Origin: a virus
Length of the DNA stretch: 27,395 bases
Direction: 5' to 3' (one strand)
Virus record (IMG/VR): IMGVR_UViG_3300022752_000319
Span: 1 to 27,395 of that record
The position numbers and the translations under genes are program-made. The notes below the pieces were generated by a model. That model was not told the origin of the DNA and made no database searches. It worked only from the letters and a program-made list of their open reading frames with translations. This document shows positions 21,106 to 27,395 of the stretch, one piece after another (positions within the stretch are counted from its first letter, which is position 1; each line of letters opens with the position of its first letter).

Positions 21106-22458
21106 TCACGACGCCGCGGTCTTGAGAGCGACCACCGGGCCGGCGGTCGTGTTGTCGCCCAGCGAGTGGTGAACCACGTCGAACCGCATCGTGCCCTGGA
21201 GCAGGAGCTGATCGGTCGTGGCGTAGACTTGGTCGTACATCCGAACCGAGAAGTCCCGGCGACGGGCGTAGATGCTGGACAGACCCAGGTTCGCGAACAG
21301 CACCTTGACCTTGCTCGGGTCGGAGCCCAGGGTGCCGTCAAGGACATGCACCATGTGAACCGGATATCCGAGGAACTGCTCGTTGACGCCGCCGCCGACC
21401 TGCTCGACGGTGTTACCGCCAGCCGCGTAGCGGAGGCGAGCCATCGACGCGGCGAAGCCGGCCGGCGAGATGTACCACGCAGCGCCCTGGCGAGCGTAGA
21501 GCGGCATCTTGCCGATGACCTTGATGAAGTCGGTCACGGTCAGGGTCTCGAAGCCCACCGCGCCCGAGCCCGCCGTCACGACGCCGGCCGTGTGCGTGCC
21601 GTCGTTGACCTTCGGCACCACGCCGTAGATTCCGCCCGACGCGGAGTCGCCTGCACCGAGCCAGCCGACCACGTCGGTCTTGTAGGCCAAGCTCGTCGCG
21701 AACTCAGTCGCGACAGCGTCAGCGATCGACACGAGGGCGTCTTCCACCACCTCGCTCGACATGCGAGTGCCGACCGCGAGCTTCTTCGCGATGAGCTGCA
21801 CGTTCGCGTAGGTCGGCTCGCTCTCGCTCACCGCGGTGCCTTCGCCGACGAAGTAAGCCGTGGTGCCAGTGACGCGCTTCGGAATGATCATCGTGTCCCG
21901 AGTCATCGTCACCTTCTCGACGTTGCTCGCCGCGAAGGTTCCATAATTTTCTACCAACCTGATCACTCGGGCAGCGAATTCCTCTGGGACGAGGGCACCG
22001 CCCGAGGCGTTGCTGTTCTCGCCGAGAGCACGGTTTTCGACGCCGTGATCCTTGCACCACCGGAGGTCGTCGGCGTTCTTGAAGATGTGCGCCCGCAGCC
22101 ACCGGCCGCAGCGGTAGGCACTCTCGACAGCCTCGGGGCCGTCGTTGAACGCCCGCAGGCTGGTGTGATGGGGCTGGATCGACCGAATCTCGACCTTCTT
22201 GTCCTCGACCTTGGCGGCCACTTCGGCCACGGGGGCCGGGGCGGGGGCGGCCTTCTCGACCACGGCCCGCAGCTCGGCCTCCTTGGCGGCGATCCGCTCC
22301 TCGAACTCGAGGGAGGTCTTCAGGTCGTCGGCCTGGGTGCCGAGCGAGATGAGTTCCTTGGTCTGCTCCGCCGAGCGGTCCTCGATGCCGGACAGCTCGG
22401 TCATCCTCGCGGCAACAGCCGCGGCACGCTCTTGAAGACGCTTGAGATTCGACGCCAT
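21106..22458 (-). CDS. HK97-fold major capsid protein
   Basis: A 450-residue protein starting at ATG 22458 (MASNLKRLQERAAAVAARM), preceded by AAGGAG; the reading frame extends further upstream but that part overlaps the protease gene. Residues 1 to about 95 are a coiled-coil scaffold-like delta domain with a Pro/Ala linker, expected to be removed by the adjacent protease. The rest has the HK97 pattern: GGALVPEEFAARVIRLVENY, RDTMIIPKRVTGTTAYFVGE, GTAVSESEPTYANVQLIAKK, KLAVGTRMSSEVVEDA and GGIYGVVPKVNDG. Length and the adjacent portal and protease support the assignment. Few cysteines are present, unlike the tail-tip proteins. Confidence 0.95.
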   Translation of the reverse strand: MASNLKRLQERAAAVAARMTELSGIEDRSAEQTKELISLGTQADDLKTSLEFEERIAAKEAELRAVVEKAAPAPAPVAEVAAKVEDKKVEIRSIQPHHTSLRAFNDGPEAVESAYRCGRWLRAHIFKNADDLRWCKDHGVENRALGENSNASGGALVPEEFAARVIRLVENYGTFAASNVEKVTMTRDTMIIPKRVTGTTAYFVGEGTAVSESEPTYANVQLIAKKLAVGTRMSSEVVEDALVSIADAVATEFATSLAYKTDVVGWLGAGDSASGGIYGVVPKVNDGTHTAGVVTAGSGAVGFETLTVTDFIKVIGKMPLYARQGAAWYISPAGFAASMARLRYAAGGNTVEQVGGGVNEQFLGYPVHMVHVLDGTLGSDPSKVKVLFANLGLSSIYARRRDFSVRMYDQVYATTDQLLLQGTMRFDVVHHSLGDNTTAGPVVALKTAAS

Positions 22459-22607: not shown

Positions 22608-24890
22608 CTAGCGATCCTTCCGTGCGCCGTGCAACTGAGTCCGAAGGATTGTCGCCTTCAGGCCGGCGAGCTTGATCGCGATGTCCGTCGCCTCCTGCTC
22701 GGCACGCTTGTCTTCGGCCGGCTTCTCTTCCACCGGAGCGGGCTCCGGCTTCTTGACTTCCTCGTTCATGCGTTCCTCGGGGATTATCCAGAACTTGCAC
22801 ACACCATTCGGAGCGATTTCGCCGCTGACGATTTCACAGCCACCGCCACCTTCGTAGAAGATGCAGTTCGCGCACGCGATGCCACGCTCCGCGAACGGGC
22901 TCTCATCCATGTAGTGGGCACCGTCGATCGCGTCCTGCGACCAGTGGCCGTTATTTTCAGCGATGACTTCCTGGCTTTCGGCGAGGTCGAGGTTTGCCTG
23001 CGACAACGTGCCTGGATACTGCTCCTCCATGCCCTCACCCGCCTCGTCCATATCGCGGGCCGCCATCTCGTTCTCCATCTGGGCGACCTTCGCTTCAGAG
23101 AACCGCCACGCGGGATCACCCCCCCAAAGCAGCCACGCCGTGTACCCTGGGGTTTCAGCACCCTTCTTCGCCCAGTCGGGCCTCTTATCGACCTTGTGGC
23201 GGCGGAACCACGCCCGCATCTCGCGAACGTGCTCCGGCGTCAGCTCCTCGCGGGCCGCAATCTTGTGGGCTCGTGCCACCGTCTCGGGCTTGAGGCCGTC
23301 GCCAGACCGCCCCGCCTCGTGCAGGGCAATCCCCCGCTTTGCGGCGGCAGCCATGCCGGCGGTCGGCTTCAGGCTGATCGCCCGCTCTTCGACTTCCGCC
23401 TCGTGGCTCCGCTCTTTCGTGGACTTGGGGTGGTCGGCCGGCAACAAGTCGTTGTCGGTGACGTACTTGGCATCCTGCGGCCCGCCGTTGCGGAGCAGAT
23501 ACAGGTATGCGTTGACCCGCGCCATCGCCCATGCCGCTCGGCTCACCCCCGGCCGATGGCTGGTCGAGTAAGCCCCGGAGCCGCGGCGGTACACCGCCAG
23601 CAATTGCCCCAGAGTCGTTCTTGACCACGACGGCTTGCCGTCCTCTCGCATGGCGGCGTTATGGTCGCGGACCTTGTTCTGGAGGCCCGCCCGCGCGGTC
23701 TTGGACACGGCGATCTTGCCGCCTGCGTTCTTCGCCGACCCCGGCTTGTTCTTGTCGCTCCCCTTGATCTGGTCTTCCTTGGGGGCCGGGGTCGACTGGG
23801 ACTTGTCGCCGGCCGCGCGGTCCTCGTCGGGAGCGTCGATCTTCGTCAACTCCGACACCATCACGACGACCATGTAGCTCTCGGGCTCGTCGTCGTCGTA
23901 TGGGGTCACGACTGCCAGCGGCGAGTCGGCTGACGCCGACTGCCCCTGGAGAGCGCCGTCTCGCATGACGTACTCGACACGCCCCATGCCGCCGTCCCAT
24001 GCCACGAAATCCCCCTCGGACAGCTCGGTAGGCTCTGCCCGCACCTCGGGAACCGTCGCGGGGGCCGTGCGTCGCGAAATCCACTTCTCACCAGCGTCGC
24101 CGCCAGCCAGTTGCCATTCGATCCAGGCCGGCGAGCCCGACCAGCCCGTCACCTTCGCCGCCAAACAGCGCTCGTAGACGCCGAAGAGGTATGAAACCTC
24201 CTCGACGCTGACGATTTCGCGGTTTGCGACTCGTTCGGCGATGCAGAGCAGGCGAGAATCGATGTTTTCGTGCCTCTGGGCCAGCTTCAGGCCGCGCTTT
24301 GACGCATTCGCCATCGTCTGGATGGGCCGAAACGACTCGCCGAGGGCCATTTCGATGGCCCGGCGGCTTACGACGACGCTGGAGGAGTCGTAGGCGGGCC
24401 GAACAACCGGCCCCACGTCCTCGAGCAGGCCGATCGCGCGCACTTCGCGCTTGCGAATGCCTCTCTGCGAGTCAGTAGACCATGAGTCGCCGTTATCTCG
24501 ACGCACCGCGAAGGCGAAACTGCTTCCGACGACCGTTCGATCCTTCACCCACTCGATCACGTTGCGTCCGACGGACGTGTTTTCGTTCGGCATGATCTCG
24601 TAACGAAGCCCATACGGGTCTTTCATCAGCTTCATCGACCCGTTTCCGGTGCGGCCGAGGAGCAAATTGCGGTCGTGATTGAACACGCCGATCACGTCGG
24701 GGTTCTCGGCGAGCACGTCGTCGAACGCATTCGGGTGAATCGTCTCGACAAAGCCCCCCAAATTGCGACTCTCGGAGTTGAAAACGGCTGCGTAGCCCGA
24801 AATTACGGGCTTTTTCTCGCCGTTGCCCATGTCTCGGTACTCGACCGTCGCGTCGGAAACCGTCGTGCGCCGCTCAATCTCGTTGCCCAT
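22608..24890 (-). CDS. Prohead protease polyprotein with extra domains
   Basis: A 760-residue protein starting with a TGATG overlap. Residues 1-190 are an S78/U35-like HK97 prohead protease: NHDRNLLLGR (H72) and GSSFAF (S124), then LLEDVGPVVRPAY. Residues about 190-340 include a small beta module (FVAWDGGMGRVEYVMRDG). Residues about 400-490 carry a phage-associated RRGSGAYSTSHRPGVSRAAW segment, and about 510-605 a TAGMAAAAKRGIALHEAGR to TAWLLWGGDPAW module. Near 673-698 a CxxC-x8-C-x12-C motif (CANCIFYEGGGGC, later NGVCKFW) resembles high-potential iron-sulfur proteins. The C-terminal 50 residues are charged and helical. Common prohead proteases are 200-300 residues, so this fusion is exceptional. 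Confidence 0.9.
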   Translation of the reverse strand: MGNEIERRTTVSDATVEYRDMGNGEKKPVISGYAAVFNSESRNLGGFVETIHPNAFDDVLAENPDVIGVFNHDRNLLLGRTGNGSMKLMKDPYGLRYEIMPNENTSVGRNVIEWVKDRTVVGSSFAFAVRRDNGDSWSTDSQRGIRKREVRAIGLLEDVGPVVRPAYDSSSVVVSRRAIEMALGESFRPIQTMANASKRGLKLAQRHENIDSRLLCIAERVANREIVSVEEVSYLFGVYERCLAAKVTGWSGSPAWIEWQLAGGDAGEKWISRRTAPATVPEVRAEPTELSEGDFVAWDGGMGRVEYVMRDGALQGQSASADSPLAVVTPYDDDEPESYMVVVMVSELTKIDAPDEDRAAGDKSQSTPAPKEDQIKGSDKNKPGSAKNAGGKIAVSKTARAGLQNKVRDHNAAMREDGKPSWSRTTLGQLLAVYRRGSGAYSTSHRPGVSRAAWAMARVNAYLYLLRNGGPQDAKYVTDNDLLPADHPKSTKERSHEAEVEERAISLKPTAGMAAAAKRGIALHEAGRSGDGLKPETVARAHKIAAREELTPEHVREMRAWFRRHKVDKRPDWAKKGAETPGYTAWLLWGGDPAWRFSEAKVAQMENEMAARDMDEAGEGMEEQYPGTLSQANLDLAESQEVIAENNGHWSQDAIDGAHYMDESPFAERGIACANCIFYEGGGGCEIVSGEIAPNGVCKFWIIPEERMNEEVKKPEPAPVEEKPAEDKRAEQEATDIAIKLAGLKATILRTQLHGARKDR

Positions 24891-25360
24891 CAGCTCACCT
24901 GATTCGCGAGGTAGTTGTCGATACCGATCTGCTCGATCACACGCTGCGTCGCTTCGATCTCAGCGACGGACGCCTCGCTGCCCTTGAGCAACTTGGCAAA
25001 AATCTTGGCCGACAGCTCGTCGCCGGCTGCACGGCACGTCAGAACATTGGCTCGCTCGACCTCCGCGGCAGCCATCTCGAGCGAAAGGTTTGCCGCGAGG
25101 ACGCCATCGAAGTCATGCCGGGGCCAATCGGGCTGATCATGGTCGTAAGTCGGCTGCACGTCGTAGAACTCGAGCCTCGCCTGCACTTCATGCAGGTGGC
25201 CGCGTTCTTCTTCGACATCGGCGCGATAGCCGGCCGCCAGCTTGCCGTAGCCCCAGCGGTCAAAGTGCTCCGCCTGCGACTGATAGTTCTCAATCGCCAG
25301 CAGATGCAGGCGAACGGAGGATTGGAGGGCGTCGATCACGCCTTCAGGTGCTTGCGGCAT
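24890..25360 (-). CDS. Bacterioferritin-like protein
   Basis: A 156-residue four-helix protein that I can align without gaps to E. coli bacterioferritin from memory, with numbering offset by one from residue 26 to the end (AIENY, FDRWGYGKLA, ANLSLEM and IGIDNYLANQ against AINQY, FKNWGLKRLN, SDLALEL and MGLQNYLQAQ). Of the ferroxidase ligands, E52, H55 and E95 are kept, but E18, E127 and H130 align with H19, S128 and S131. The heme ligand M52 aligns with R53. Iron oxidation is therefore doubtful. No targeting peptide or signal is visible. It overlaps the portal by 17 nt, and its stop overlaps the protease start (TGATG), so it is made with the head genes. Confidence 0.85.
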   Translation of the reverse strand: MPQAPEGVIDALQSSVRLHLLAIENYQSQAEHFDRWGYGKLAAGYRADVEEERGHLHEVQARLEFYDVQPTYDHDQPDWPRHDFDGVLAANLSLEMAAAEVERANVLTCRAAGDELSAKIFAKLLKGSEASVAEIEATQRVIEQIGIDNYLANQVS

Positions 25361-26987
25361 CAGTCGTCAGGTGCTTGTCGCACCAGTCCTCGGTGACGGT
25401 TTCGTACTTCTGGCCGCTGCGATGACACTCCAGCAAGAGTTCTCGCGAGCGGTTCGCCCACACTCCCACGAACTTCTCGATGTCTCTGCCAGTAGCCTGC
25501 GCCGACTCTCGCAGCTCTTCTCGCATGCGAGCGGCCATCTGGTCGAACCACGCGGACAGCTTCTCGGGCTTGTTGCGCCGCTCGAGAACGCCGTCGGCCT
25601 CGATGACGGCGAGCCGCCGAAGATTCGTCTTGAACAAGACCTCGGCACCGGCGACCTGACGGGCATCCGTCGTGTCCGCGGTGTCGCCTGCCTGCGGCTC
25701 GGGCGGCGAGTCGACGCTCGCCGGCGGGGCGGGGGCCACCTCTGCCTGCGGCTTCTGGCCGGTGGGGTTGTCCAGCGTGAACGCCTCAAGAAGCTGCATG
25801 TTCACCTGAATGAATCGCTTCTTGCCCATGTCGTTGGGCAGCGGGTTGTAGCCGATCTGAGCACGAATCTCGTCGACATCGAGCGCACCGAGATTCGCCA
25901 TCTCGCGGATGAACTGCGACCGCGCCGCGTAGTCGCCGGCCATCAGGGCATTCACGTCGAACTGGCAGAAATACTGCTTGTCATCGACGACGAGGTCGCG
26001 GCGGCAGGCCATTTCCCATCGGCGGCACCACGGGATCAAACTGAACGTGACGAAGTCGATGGCAGACTGCTCGACCGTGCTGAAGCGGACGTTGGTCAAA
26101 TCCCCCAAAAGGTGAGGCGGCACGCGATAGGCTCTCGCCACCTCCTCAACTTGATAGCGGCGGGTCTCAATGAGCTGGGCGGTGTCATTGCGAATCTCCA
26201 CCTGCTTGCGATGGAAGCCGAACGGCATGACGACGGTTTTGTACGCCTTATCCGGCCCCTGATGCGCGTCGTTCCACTGCTCCTTGAAGCGGGCCAGCAC
26301 CTCGGGCTTGTGCGGCTGATCGGTTTCGATGTACGTCCCCGGCTGGGCACCGTTGCCGAAAAACGACCCCGAGTGCAACTCGGTGGCTCTTGCCAGCCCG
26401 ATTGCGTCGCGAGACAGGCTCGTGGGCACGAACCCCGTCACCCCATCGCTTGAAAGCCACCGCAAATGAAAAATCTCGTCCTGCCGATACTCAGTGACTT
26501 CGACTTGAGGCTGAATCGGCGTTGTCGGCTCGGTGTAGTAATACCGCAGCTTGCCGTTCGTGAGCCGCTTGACCTCCATCCGCGACGGATGCAGCGGGAT
26601 CAGCTCAGTCACGCCGCCCTGCCGGCCGCCCTTGATGTAGGCGTAGGCGTTACCCCAGAGAAGCAGCCAGCTCTGCATCAATTCGCGAAACTCGAAGCCC
26701 GTCATCCACGAGTTCGGCTGGTAGCAGAGCACCTCGTGCAGATGCTGCTCTTCGGCGATTTCCTTGCCGCCGCCGGGGAGCCTGCGATAGACGTTGAAAG
26801 GCAACGAGGCGATCGACTCGGACAGAACACGCACGCACGCGAGAACCGCGGTGCACTCCAGGGCCGTTTCTGGCGACACCGTGACGCCCGACGCCGTCCG
26901 TCGGGTGTTCGTAATCTCCTCGAAAATACGAGAGAGATTGCCGCGAAGCTCGATCAGATCGGAGACTTCCTCGTCGACCTTGTCCAC
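25344..26987 (-). CDS. HK97-type portal protein
   Basis: A 547-residue protein with the phage portal signature: ECTAVLACVRVLSESIASLP then FNVYRR, WLLLWGNAYAYIKGG, ELIPLHPSRMEV, FHLRWLSSDGVTGFVPTSLS, and LARFKEQWNDAHQGPDKAYK. EVARAYRVPPHLLGDLTNVR followed by FSTVEQSAIDFVTFSLIPW is diagnostic. The dodecameric ring serves as the DNA channel. The C-terminal 150 residues are Pro-rich then helical. GTG 26987 follows the terminase stop by one base. The length is within the upper range for HK97-type portals. Confidence 0.97.
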   Translation of the reverse strand: MDKVDEEVSDLIELRGNLSRIFEEITNTRRTASGVTVSPETALECTAVLACVRVLSESIASLPFNVYRRLPGGGKEIAEEQHLHEVLCYQPNSWMTGFEFRELMQSWLLLWGNAYAYIKGGRQGGVTELIPLHPSRMEVKRLTNGKLRYYYTEPTTPIQPQVEVTEYRQDEIFHLRWLSSDGVTGFVPTSLSRDAIGLARATELHSGSFFGNGAQPGTYIETDQPHKPEVLARFKEQWNDAHQGPDKAYKTVVMPFGFHRKQVEIRNDTAQLIETRRYQVEEVARAYRVPPHLLGDLTNVRFSTVEQSAIDFVTFSLIPWCRRWEMACRRDLVVDDKQYFCQFDVNALMAGDYAARSQFIREMANLGALDVDEIRAQIGYNPLPNDMGKKRFIQVNMQLLEAFTLDNPTGQKPQAEVAPAPPASVDSPPEPQAGDTADTTDARQVAGAEVLFKTNLRRLAVIEADGVLERRNKPEKLSAWFDQMAARMREELRESAQATGRDIEKFVGVWANRSRELLLECHRSGQKYETVTEDWCDKHLTTDAAST

Positions 26988-26988
26988 G

Positions 26989-27395
26989 CTACAGCACCAT
27001 GAGGGTGGGTTCGTCAGTGTTGCCGTGGTTCTCGCCAGAGGCGATGCCCAAGGCCATGATCAGCGAGACCGCGCCGTCGATGCGGGCCGTGGAATGACTG
27101 TTTTTCTTGGTCGGCTTGATGTTCCCGGCGTCGTCTACCTTCACCTGCACGTTCGACATCTGCCACGTCAGGACAGGGTTGCCGCCGTGACGCAGACGTT
27201 TACCGACTACGAGAGTTACAAGCAGCTTGCTGGGCGCGCTCATACTGGCAAACCCCTGCCCGAAAGGCCTCACGTCGATGCCTTCGGCCGTCAGTTGAGT
27301 CGTCAGATGAACTGCGTTCCAGCGGTCAATCGCAATAGCCCGAACCTGATTCTTCTCGCAAAACGAGAGAACGTAGTCGCGGACAGCGTCGTAAT
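26989..27395 (-). CDS. Large terminase subunit, C-terminal part
   Basis: The frame is open from the right edge of the window (first complete codon at 27393) to TAG at 26989. It contains AIAIDRWNAVHLTTQL, then GIDVRPFGQGFASMSAPSKL and LRHGGNPVLTWQMSNVQVKV, ending ARIDGAVSLIMALGIA. This is the C-terminal RNase H-like nuclease region of the HK97/Terminase_1-type large subunit, which cuts concatemers during packaging. The D of IDRWNA and the last D of ARIDGAV are in the positions of conserved acidic residues. The ATPase part lies outside the window. Confidence 0.92.
   Translation of the reverse strand, partial: YDAVRDYVLSFCEKNQVRAIAIDRWNAVHLTTQLTAEGIDVRPFGQGFASMSAPSKLLVTLVVGKRLRHGGNPVLTWQMSNVQVKVDDAGNIKPTKKNSHSTARIDGAVSLIMALGIASGENHGNTDEPTLMVL

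What the first reader, a model, noticed from the sequence alone, without database searches (positions are those of the whole stretch)
24890..25360. Bacterioferritin-fold gene inside the head operon, with a half-degenerate diiron centre
Between portal and prohead protease, where HK97-type phages normally carry nothing, lies a 156-residue protein that aligns without gaps to bacterioferritin. Three ferroxidase ligands are kept (E52, H55, E95) and three are replaced (H19, S128, S131); the heme Met is Arg. It overlaps both neighbours, so it is co-translated with head proteins. It could be a virion component, a chaperone of head assembly or an iron or metal binder. I know of no described phage head protein of this type, though recall is limited.
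Basis: partly seen in the sequence, partly recalled or inferred. Interest (0 to 1): 0.8.

Follow-up and report, generated by a model that had tools for sequence, protein, structure and literature searches.

The report
Swappable phage bacterioferritin with remodelled metal site
A group of uncultured phages carries a bacterioferritin-fold gene wedged between two capsid genes; its metal site is rebuilt and conserved rather than decayed, and the gene is swapped, moved or lost between close relatives, so it is probably a helper gene rather than part of the capsid machinery.

Summary
The 156-aa ORF (24890-25360, minus strand) is a bacterioferritin homologue: Pfam Ferritin 9e-11, best PDB sequence hit 1.4e-10, AlphaFold pLDDT 96, Foldseek TM about 0.93-0.95 to solved Bfrs. 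It sits between portal and prohead protease and overlaps both.

Two parts of the interpretation need changing. First, the metal centre is remodelled, not half degenerate: in 64 of 64 distinct relatives H19, E52, H55 and S128 are invariant and position 95 is E or D. Second, it is not an integral head protein. Of 82 related portal-protease loci, 46 have the gene and 36 do not. L170 carries a clean deletion of it although its portal DNA is 96-99% identical to that of L171, and L137 keeps only its tail. Divergent alleles (50-56% identical) are exchanged precisely between phages whose portals are 95-98% identical. Other members of the same clade lie in the replication module behind a helicase, with their own ribosome-binding site. 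Each of nine positive records tested has exactly one ferritin gene.

Most likely it is an accessory, cage-forming metal- or ROS-buffering protein, made late by translational coupling. A virion-borne role is untested. It is a new, phage-dominated branch of the bacterioferritin fold.

The parts
24890..25360 (-). Bacterioferritin-fold gene, 156 aa, phage-type clade (H19, E52, H55, E95, S128, S131; R53 at the heme Met position)
25344..26987 (-). HK97-type portal protein, upstream neighbour; its end overlaps the ferritin start by 17 bases
   Evidence: PF04860 1.7e-94, phrog_12 1.2e-103
22608..24890 (-). Prohead serine protease with long C-terminal extension, downstream neighbour; ATG overlaps the ferritin stop (TGATG)
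   Evidence: PF04586 7.2e-36, phrog_80 1.7e-37
21106..22458 (-). Major head protein (start inferred at the internal ATG, MASNLKRL; the ORF is open to 22800)
   Evidence: phrog_10 4.9e-42
26989..27393 (-). C-terminal fragment of the large terminase, cut by the window end
   Evidence: homologous to the full-length ORF upstream of portal in related loci; identity as terminase is by position and conservation, not by a family search

Best explanation
The gene encodes an accessory, non-essential bacterioferritin-fold protein. It most likely assembles into a Bfr-type cage and binds a metal ion at a rebuilt, probably mononuclear site (H19, E52, H55, E/D95) in place of the di-iron ferroxidase centre. 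In the head operon it is made late and in step with portal and protease by translational coupling, and there it most likely buffers iron or another metal, and so oxidative damage, in the infected cell while virions are assembled. Shown: fold, conserved site, absence from close relatives, exchange as a cassette, alternative location. Inferred: cage assembly, metal binding, the metal/ROS role, and late timing.
For: Fold: AF2 pLDDT 96.1, pTM 0.88 with short helix E; Foldseek hits are Bfrs, TM about 0.93-0.95. Site kept by selection: 64/64 H19, E52, H55, S128, and E or D at 95; 4 of 6 ligand columns invariant against 25 of 156 columns overall, hypergeometric p 0.006 (rough because columns are not independent); within-type dN/dS median 0.145. 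Helix-E motif I145 G146 N149 Y150 L151 invariant in the 32-row alignment. Dispensable: 36 of 82 related loci lack it, with deletion scars in L170 and L137 and a clean junction in L138. Exchangeable: portal 98% with ferritin 51% (L023/L057), identity dip confined to the gene. Movable: behind a helicase with its own Shine-Dalgarno in L070, L073, L076, L077, L081, L084, in phages that share a homologous helicase; one copy per positive record. Ferritin among ROS-defence genes of freshwater phages has been reported (PMC6802176).
Against: No direct evidence of metal binding, cage formation or timing. Loss of E127 and H130 equivalents makes an ordinary ferroxidase unlikely, so iron mineralisation may be lost altogether. 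Most members found are in the head operon, so a link to assembly is not excluded. All genomes are metagenomic contigs and mostly fragments.
Confidence: 0.5

Rival explanations
1. Virion component: the protein enters the procapsid lumen or decorates the head, like ferritin-like cargo in encapsulins, and protects or supplies metal to virion contents.
For: Position between portal and protease with coupled translation; weak structural matches to uncultured-phage proteins annotated as prohead protease or Dps, hinting at fused ferritin-like domains elsewhere; a ferritin-like phage protein detected by mass spectrometry in Vi01-like phages (PMC10892097); ferritin-like cargo in HK97-fold encapsulins (PMC8346489).
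Against: Replication-module copies have their own ribosome-binding site, so the protein works without head-operon expression; absent from near-identical head operons. No virion proteomics.
Confidence: 0.2
2. Interference with the host's own bacterioferritin or ferritin: the phage subunit joins host cages or their ferredoxin partner and changes iron storage or release to favour the phage.
For: Bfr fold and conserved helix-E packing motif; allele exchange at 50-56% identity could reflect matching to different hosts; half of 398 planctomycete-class genomes carry a Bfr-like protein.
Against: Host unknown. In the one genome family searched closely, only 3 of 72 genomes have any match, and those are phage-type. 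Dimer-interface positions were not tested structurally.
Confidence: 0.15
3. Head-assembly chaperone or scaffold that happens to use the ferritin bundle.
For: Overlapping reading frames with portal and protease.
Against: L170 and L171 differ by a clean deletion with 94-99% identical flanks; 36 of 82 related loci lack it; family members outside the head operon; buried metal-site residues are the conserved ones.
Confidence: 0.05
4. Selfish or neutral cassette: the gene persists by recombination at the portal-protease junction without benefit to the phage.
For: Repeated gain or loss and allele exchange.
Against: Purifying selection (dN/dS 0.145) and invariant residues; no homing nuclease or mobility gene inside the insert.
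Confidence: 0.05

Closest known systems
Bacterioferritin (Bfr, TIGR00754; PDB 5zur, 1bcf, 1sof)
   Same: Whole-length homology (about 22-27% identity), four-helix bundle plus short helix E, E52/H55/E95 equivalents, invariant N-Y-L near the C terminus
   Different: E18 to H19, E127 to S128, H130 to S/A/G131, heme Met52 to Arg53; new invariant H32, H82, E102; forms a separate clade, 100/100
Planctomycete Bfr-like proteins (L105-L123)
   Same: Same fold; most of those read also have S/T and S at the E127 and H130 positions
   Different: Keep E18 and the heme Met; they form a separate group on the tree; the sample is the top scorers of the search and therefore biased
Phage-borne ferritin or Dps genes as ROS-defence genes in freshwater phages (PMC6802176)
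   Same: Ferritin-family gene on freshwater phages, proposed to limit oxidative damage
   Different: Here a distinct Bfr-derived clade, remodelled site, exchanged within the head operon; whether that paper's ferritins include this one was not tested
Ferritin-like cargo of encapsulins (PMC8346489)
   Same: Ferritin-fold protein encoded beside an HK97-fold shell gene
   Different: Genuine phage head operon with portal, protease and terminase; cargo-loading peptide not tested; gene also found away from head genes

Membership tests
Ferritin superfamily (PF00210) | Profile match above curated cut-off | tested here: met
   42.3 bits against 24.5, E 9.2e-11
Ferritin superfamily (PF00210) | Four-helix ferritin bundle | tested here: met
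   AF2 model and Foldseek
Bacterioferritin (TIGR00754 equivalog) | Score above equivalog cut-off | tested here: not met
   52.9 bits against 125.55
Bacterioferritin (TIGR00754 equivalog) | Six di-iron ligands (E18, E51, H54, E94, E127, H130) | tested here: not met
   Three kept in the window, three replaced; pattern fixed in 64 relatives apart from E/D95 and S/A/G131
Bacterioferritin (TIGR00754 equivalog) | Heme-ligating Met52 | tested here: not met
   Arg53 in the window, R in 59 of 64, never M among the residues listed
Bacterioferritin (TIGR00754 equivalog) | 24-subunit cage | not testable with these tools
   Only the conserved helix-E motif hints at it
Bacterioferritin (TIGR00754 equivalog) | Ferroxidase activity and iron core | not testable with these tools
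   Needs biochemistry
Integral phage head protein | Present wherever the same head genes occur | tested here: not met
   36 of 82 loci lack it; L170, L137 and L138
Integral phage head protein | Found in virions | not testable with these tools
   No proteomics available
Encapsulin cargo | C-terminal targeting peptide and non-phage shell operon | not tested
   Operon is a phage head operon; targeting peptide not examined

The most novel reading that the evidence does not exclude
A phage-specific ferritin cage with a rebuilt mononuclear metal site is made beside the forming procapsid and enters or decorates the virion, a viral parallel to encapsulin cargo, with divergent alleles swapped as host- or partner-matching cassettes.
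Probability: 0.15. Interest if true: 0.8.

Novelty: new variant of a known kind. Interest (0 to 1): 0.48.

Why it matters
It defines a phage-dominated branch of the bacterioferritin fold with a conserved non-canonical metal site, and nature supplies matched pairs (with and without the gene, or with different alleles) that make its role testable. It also shows that lying inside a head operon does not make a gene a head gene: here an accessory gene is traded precisely between portal and protease.

Tried and rejected
Chance similarity: rejected. Decaying pseudogene: rejected by purifying selection and invariant residues. Head chaperone or scaffold: made unlikely by natural deletions. Functional link to the HiPIP-like motif in the protease: raw co-occurrence is strong (32 both, 17 neither, 7 and 6 discordant), but only 5 phylogenetically independent pairs exist and the sign test gives p about 0.5, so no link is claimed. 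Annotated phage relatives: the only two hits, Acinetobacter 'phage' MD-2021a, have an ordinary bfr beside zipA and ligA and look like bacterial chromosome. Host: a related portal (62%) is in a planctomycete-family genome, but on a 14,043-base contig, the same length as a viral record (that of L195), so it may be a binned phage contig. The copies in planctomycete genomes nest in the phage clade beside L049, so they are not the cellular ancestor.

Full report
OBSERVATION. The ORF at 24890-25360 on the minus strand is 156 codons long, starts with ATG inside the end of the portal gene and ends with a TGA that shares its A with the ATG of the prohead protease. Pfam Ferritin matches at 9.2e-11, NCBIfam bfr at 3.9e-14 but well under its equivalog cut-off, and PDB bacterioferritins at 1.4e-10 and weaker. 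The flanks are an HK97 portal and an S78 prohead protease, followed by the major head protein. The window is an IMG/VR virus record.

STRUCTURE. With an alignment of 32 relatives AlphaFold2 gives mean pLDDT 96.1 and pTM 0.88, with helices 8-35, 39-65, 84-111, 115-145 and a short fifth helix 147-152. The best Foldseek matches in the PDB are bacterioferritins and close ferritins, TM mostly 0.92-0.95 and rmsd mostly 1.1-1.7.

FAMILY. A single-sequence scan found 27 viral loci and a profile scan 72; four of the 72 (L087-L090) carry an ordinary Bfr with all six ligands. A tree of 94 distinct proteins puts the 64 phage-type ones in one clade with 100/100 support, apart from 17 planctomycete Bfr-like proteins and 13 others. 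Within that clade H19, H32, E52, H55, R62, H82, E102, D114, S128 and N149 are invariant; 95 is E (38) or D (26); 131 is S, A or G; 53 is R in 59. This is a rebuilt, maintained site. Changes at the E127 and H130 positions also occur in most of the planctomycete proteins I read, but those were the top scorers of the search, so the sample is biased.

THE GENE COMES AND GOES. A portal search and a portal-profile search gave 82 non-identical loci with portal and protease; 46 have the gene between them and 36 have essentially nothing there. The label needs at least six changes on the portal tree. L170 and L171 are 96-99% identical in portal DNA and 94-99% after the gene, yet L170 lacks it: the first six codons of the ferritin are joined to its last bases and run in frame into the protease. 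L137 ends its portal with DQIGLDNYLVNKVQE, recognisably the ferritin tail. L138 has the same TAATCATG junction as L019 but leads straight into the protease. None of the records of L137-L139 holds a copy elsewhere, though they are fragments.

ALLELES ARE SWAPPED. L023 and L057 share 98% identical portals but 51% identical ferritins; window and L025, 95% and 56%. DNA identity between window and L025 is 80-95% in portal, about 60% in the ferritin gene and 79-92% again in the N-terminal part of the protease. Within allele types dN/dS is 0.145 (median of 126 non-independent pairs).

IT ALSO LIVES ELSEWHERE. In L070, L073 and L082 the gene follows a helicase and precedes a DNA methyltransferase; L070, L073, L076, L077, L081 and L084 have a Shine-Dalgarno-like GGA(G/T) just upstream, which the head-operon copies lack. 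L049 has it near an integrase. Eleven records tested, with the gene in the head operon, in the replication module or absent, all carry a homologous helicase at 36-56% identity to that of L073, and each of nine positive records (one of them, G010, with an ordinary Bfr) has exactly one ferritin gene. Which location is ancestral could not be decided because the tree is unrooted.

MECHANISM. The facts point to an accessory protein that is selected for what it does in the infected cell rather than for a place in the capsid. Invariant helix-E residues suggest that Bfr-type packing remains. H19, E52, H55 and E/D95 could hold one metal ion. An ordinary ferroxidase is unlikely. I commit to late metal and ROS buffering (0.5), with virion component (0.2), interference with host Bfr (0.15), head chaperone (0.05) and neutral cassette (0.05) as rivals.

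LITERATURE. Freshwater phages carrying ferritin among ROS-defence genes are reported (PMC6802176). A ferritin-like protein, assigned by Phyre2, was found by mass spectrometry in Vi01-like phages, and iron-uptake mutants did not change infection (PMC10892097). Host Bfr was found in a purified phage sample (PMC9206674), a warning for proteomics. My searches found no description of a bacterioferritin between portal and protease, but the library lacks most subscription papers.

LIMITS. All genomes are metagenomic contigs, many from related samples, so counts are of sequences, not independent events. E. coli Bfr ligand numbering and ligand roles are from general knowledge of the family.

Noticed in passing
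window 22794-22877 (-): The C-terminal part of the prohead protease has a HiPIP-like four-cysteine motif (CANCIFYEGGGGCEIVSGEIAPNGVCKFW); a profile of 12 copies matches solved HiPIP 3h31 at E 0.0013 with all four cysteines aligned. It is frequent in this phage group with or without the ferritin gene.
   Followed up: partly
L096 3116-10285 (+); L097 2141-5608 (+): In two 94-96 kb phages the portal is the start of a giant ORF (2389 and 1155 aa) that also holds the HiPIP-like motif and repeated RAFCPTGEGGG..N.C motifs.
   Followed up: no
L091 7884-8468 (+); L104: Copies of the phage-type protein in planctomycete genomes have an upstream in-frame stretch resembling a signal peptide (MLKMLGLGLAICASSIAISA), suggesting an exported, domesticated version; L091 nests inside the phage clade.
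   Followed up: partly
BFVD hits listed (e.g. A0A6J7XDU5, A0A6J7WIS1, A0A6J7WPK9): Several uncultured-phage proteins annotated prohead protease or Dps (290-763 aa) match the ferritin fold, hinting that ferritin-like domains have been fused to head proteases elsewhere.
   Followed up: no
L087 5983-6456 (+): A 107-kb phage record with an SU10-type major head protein carries an ordinary bacterioferritin with all six ligands, beside a glycosyltransferase.
   Followed up: no
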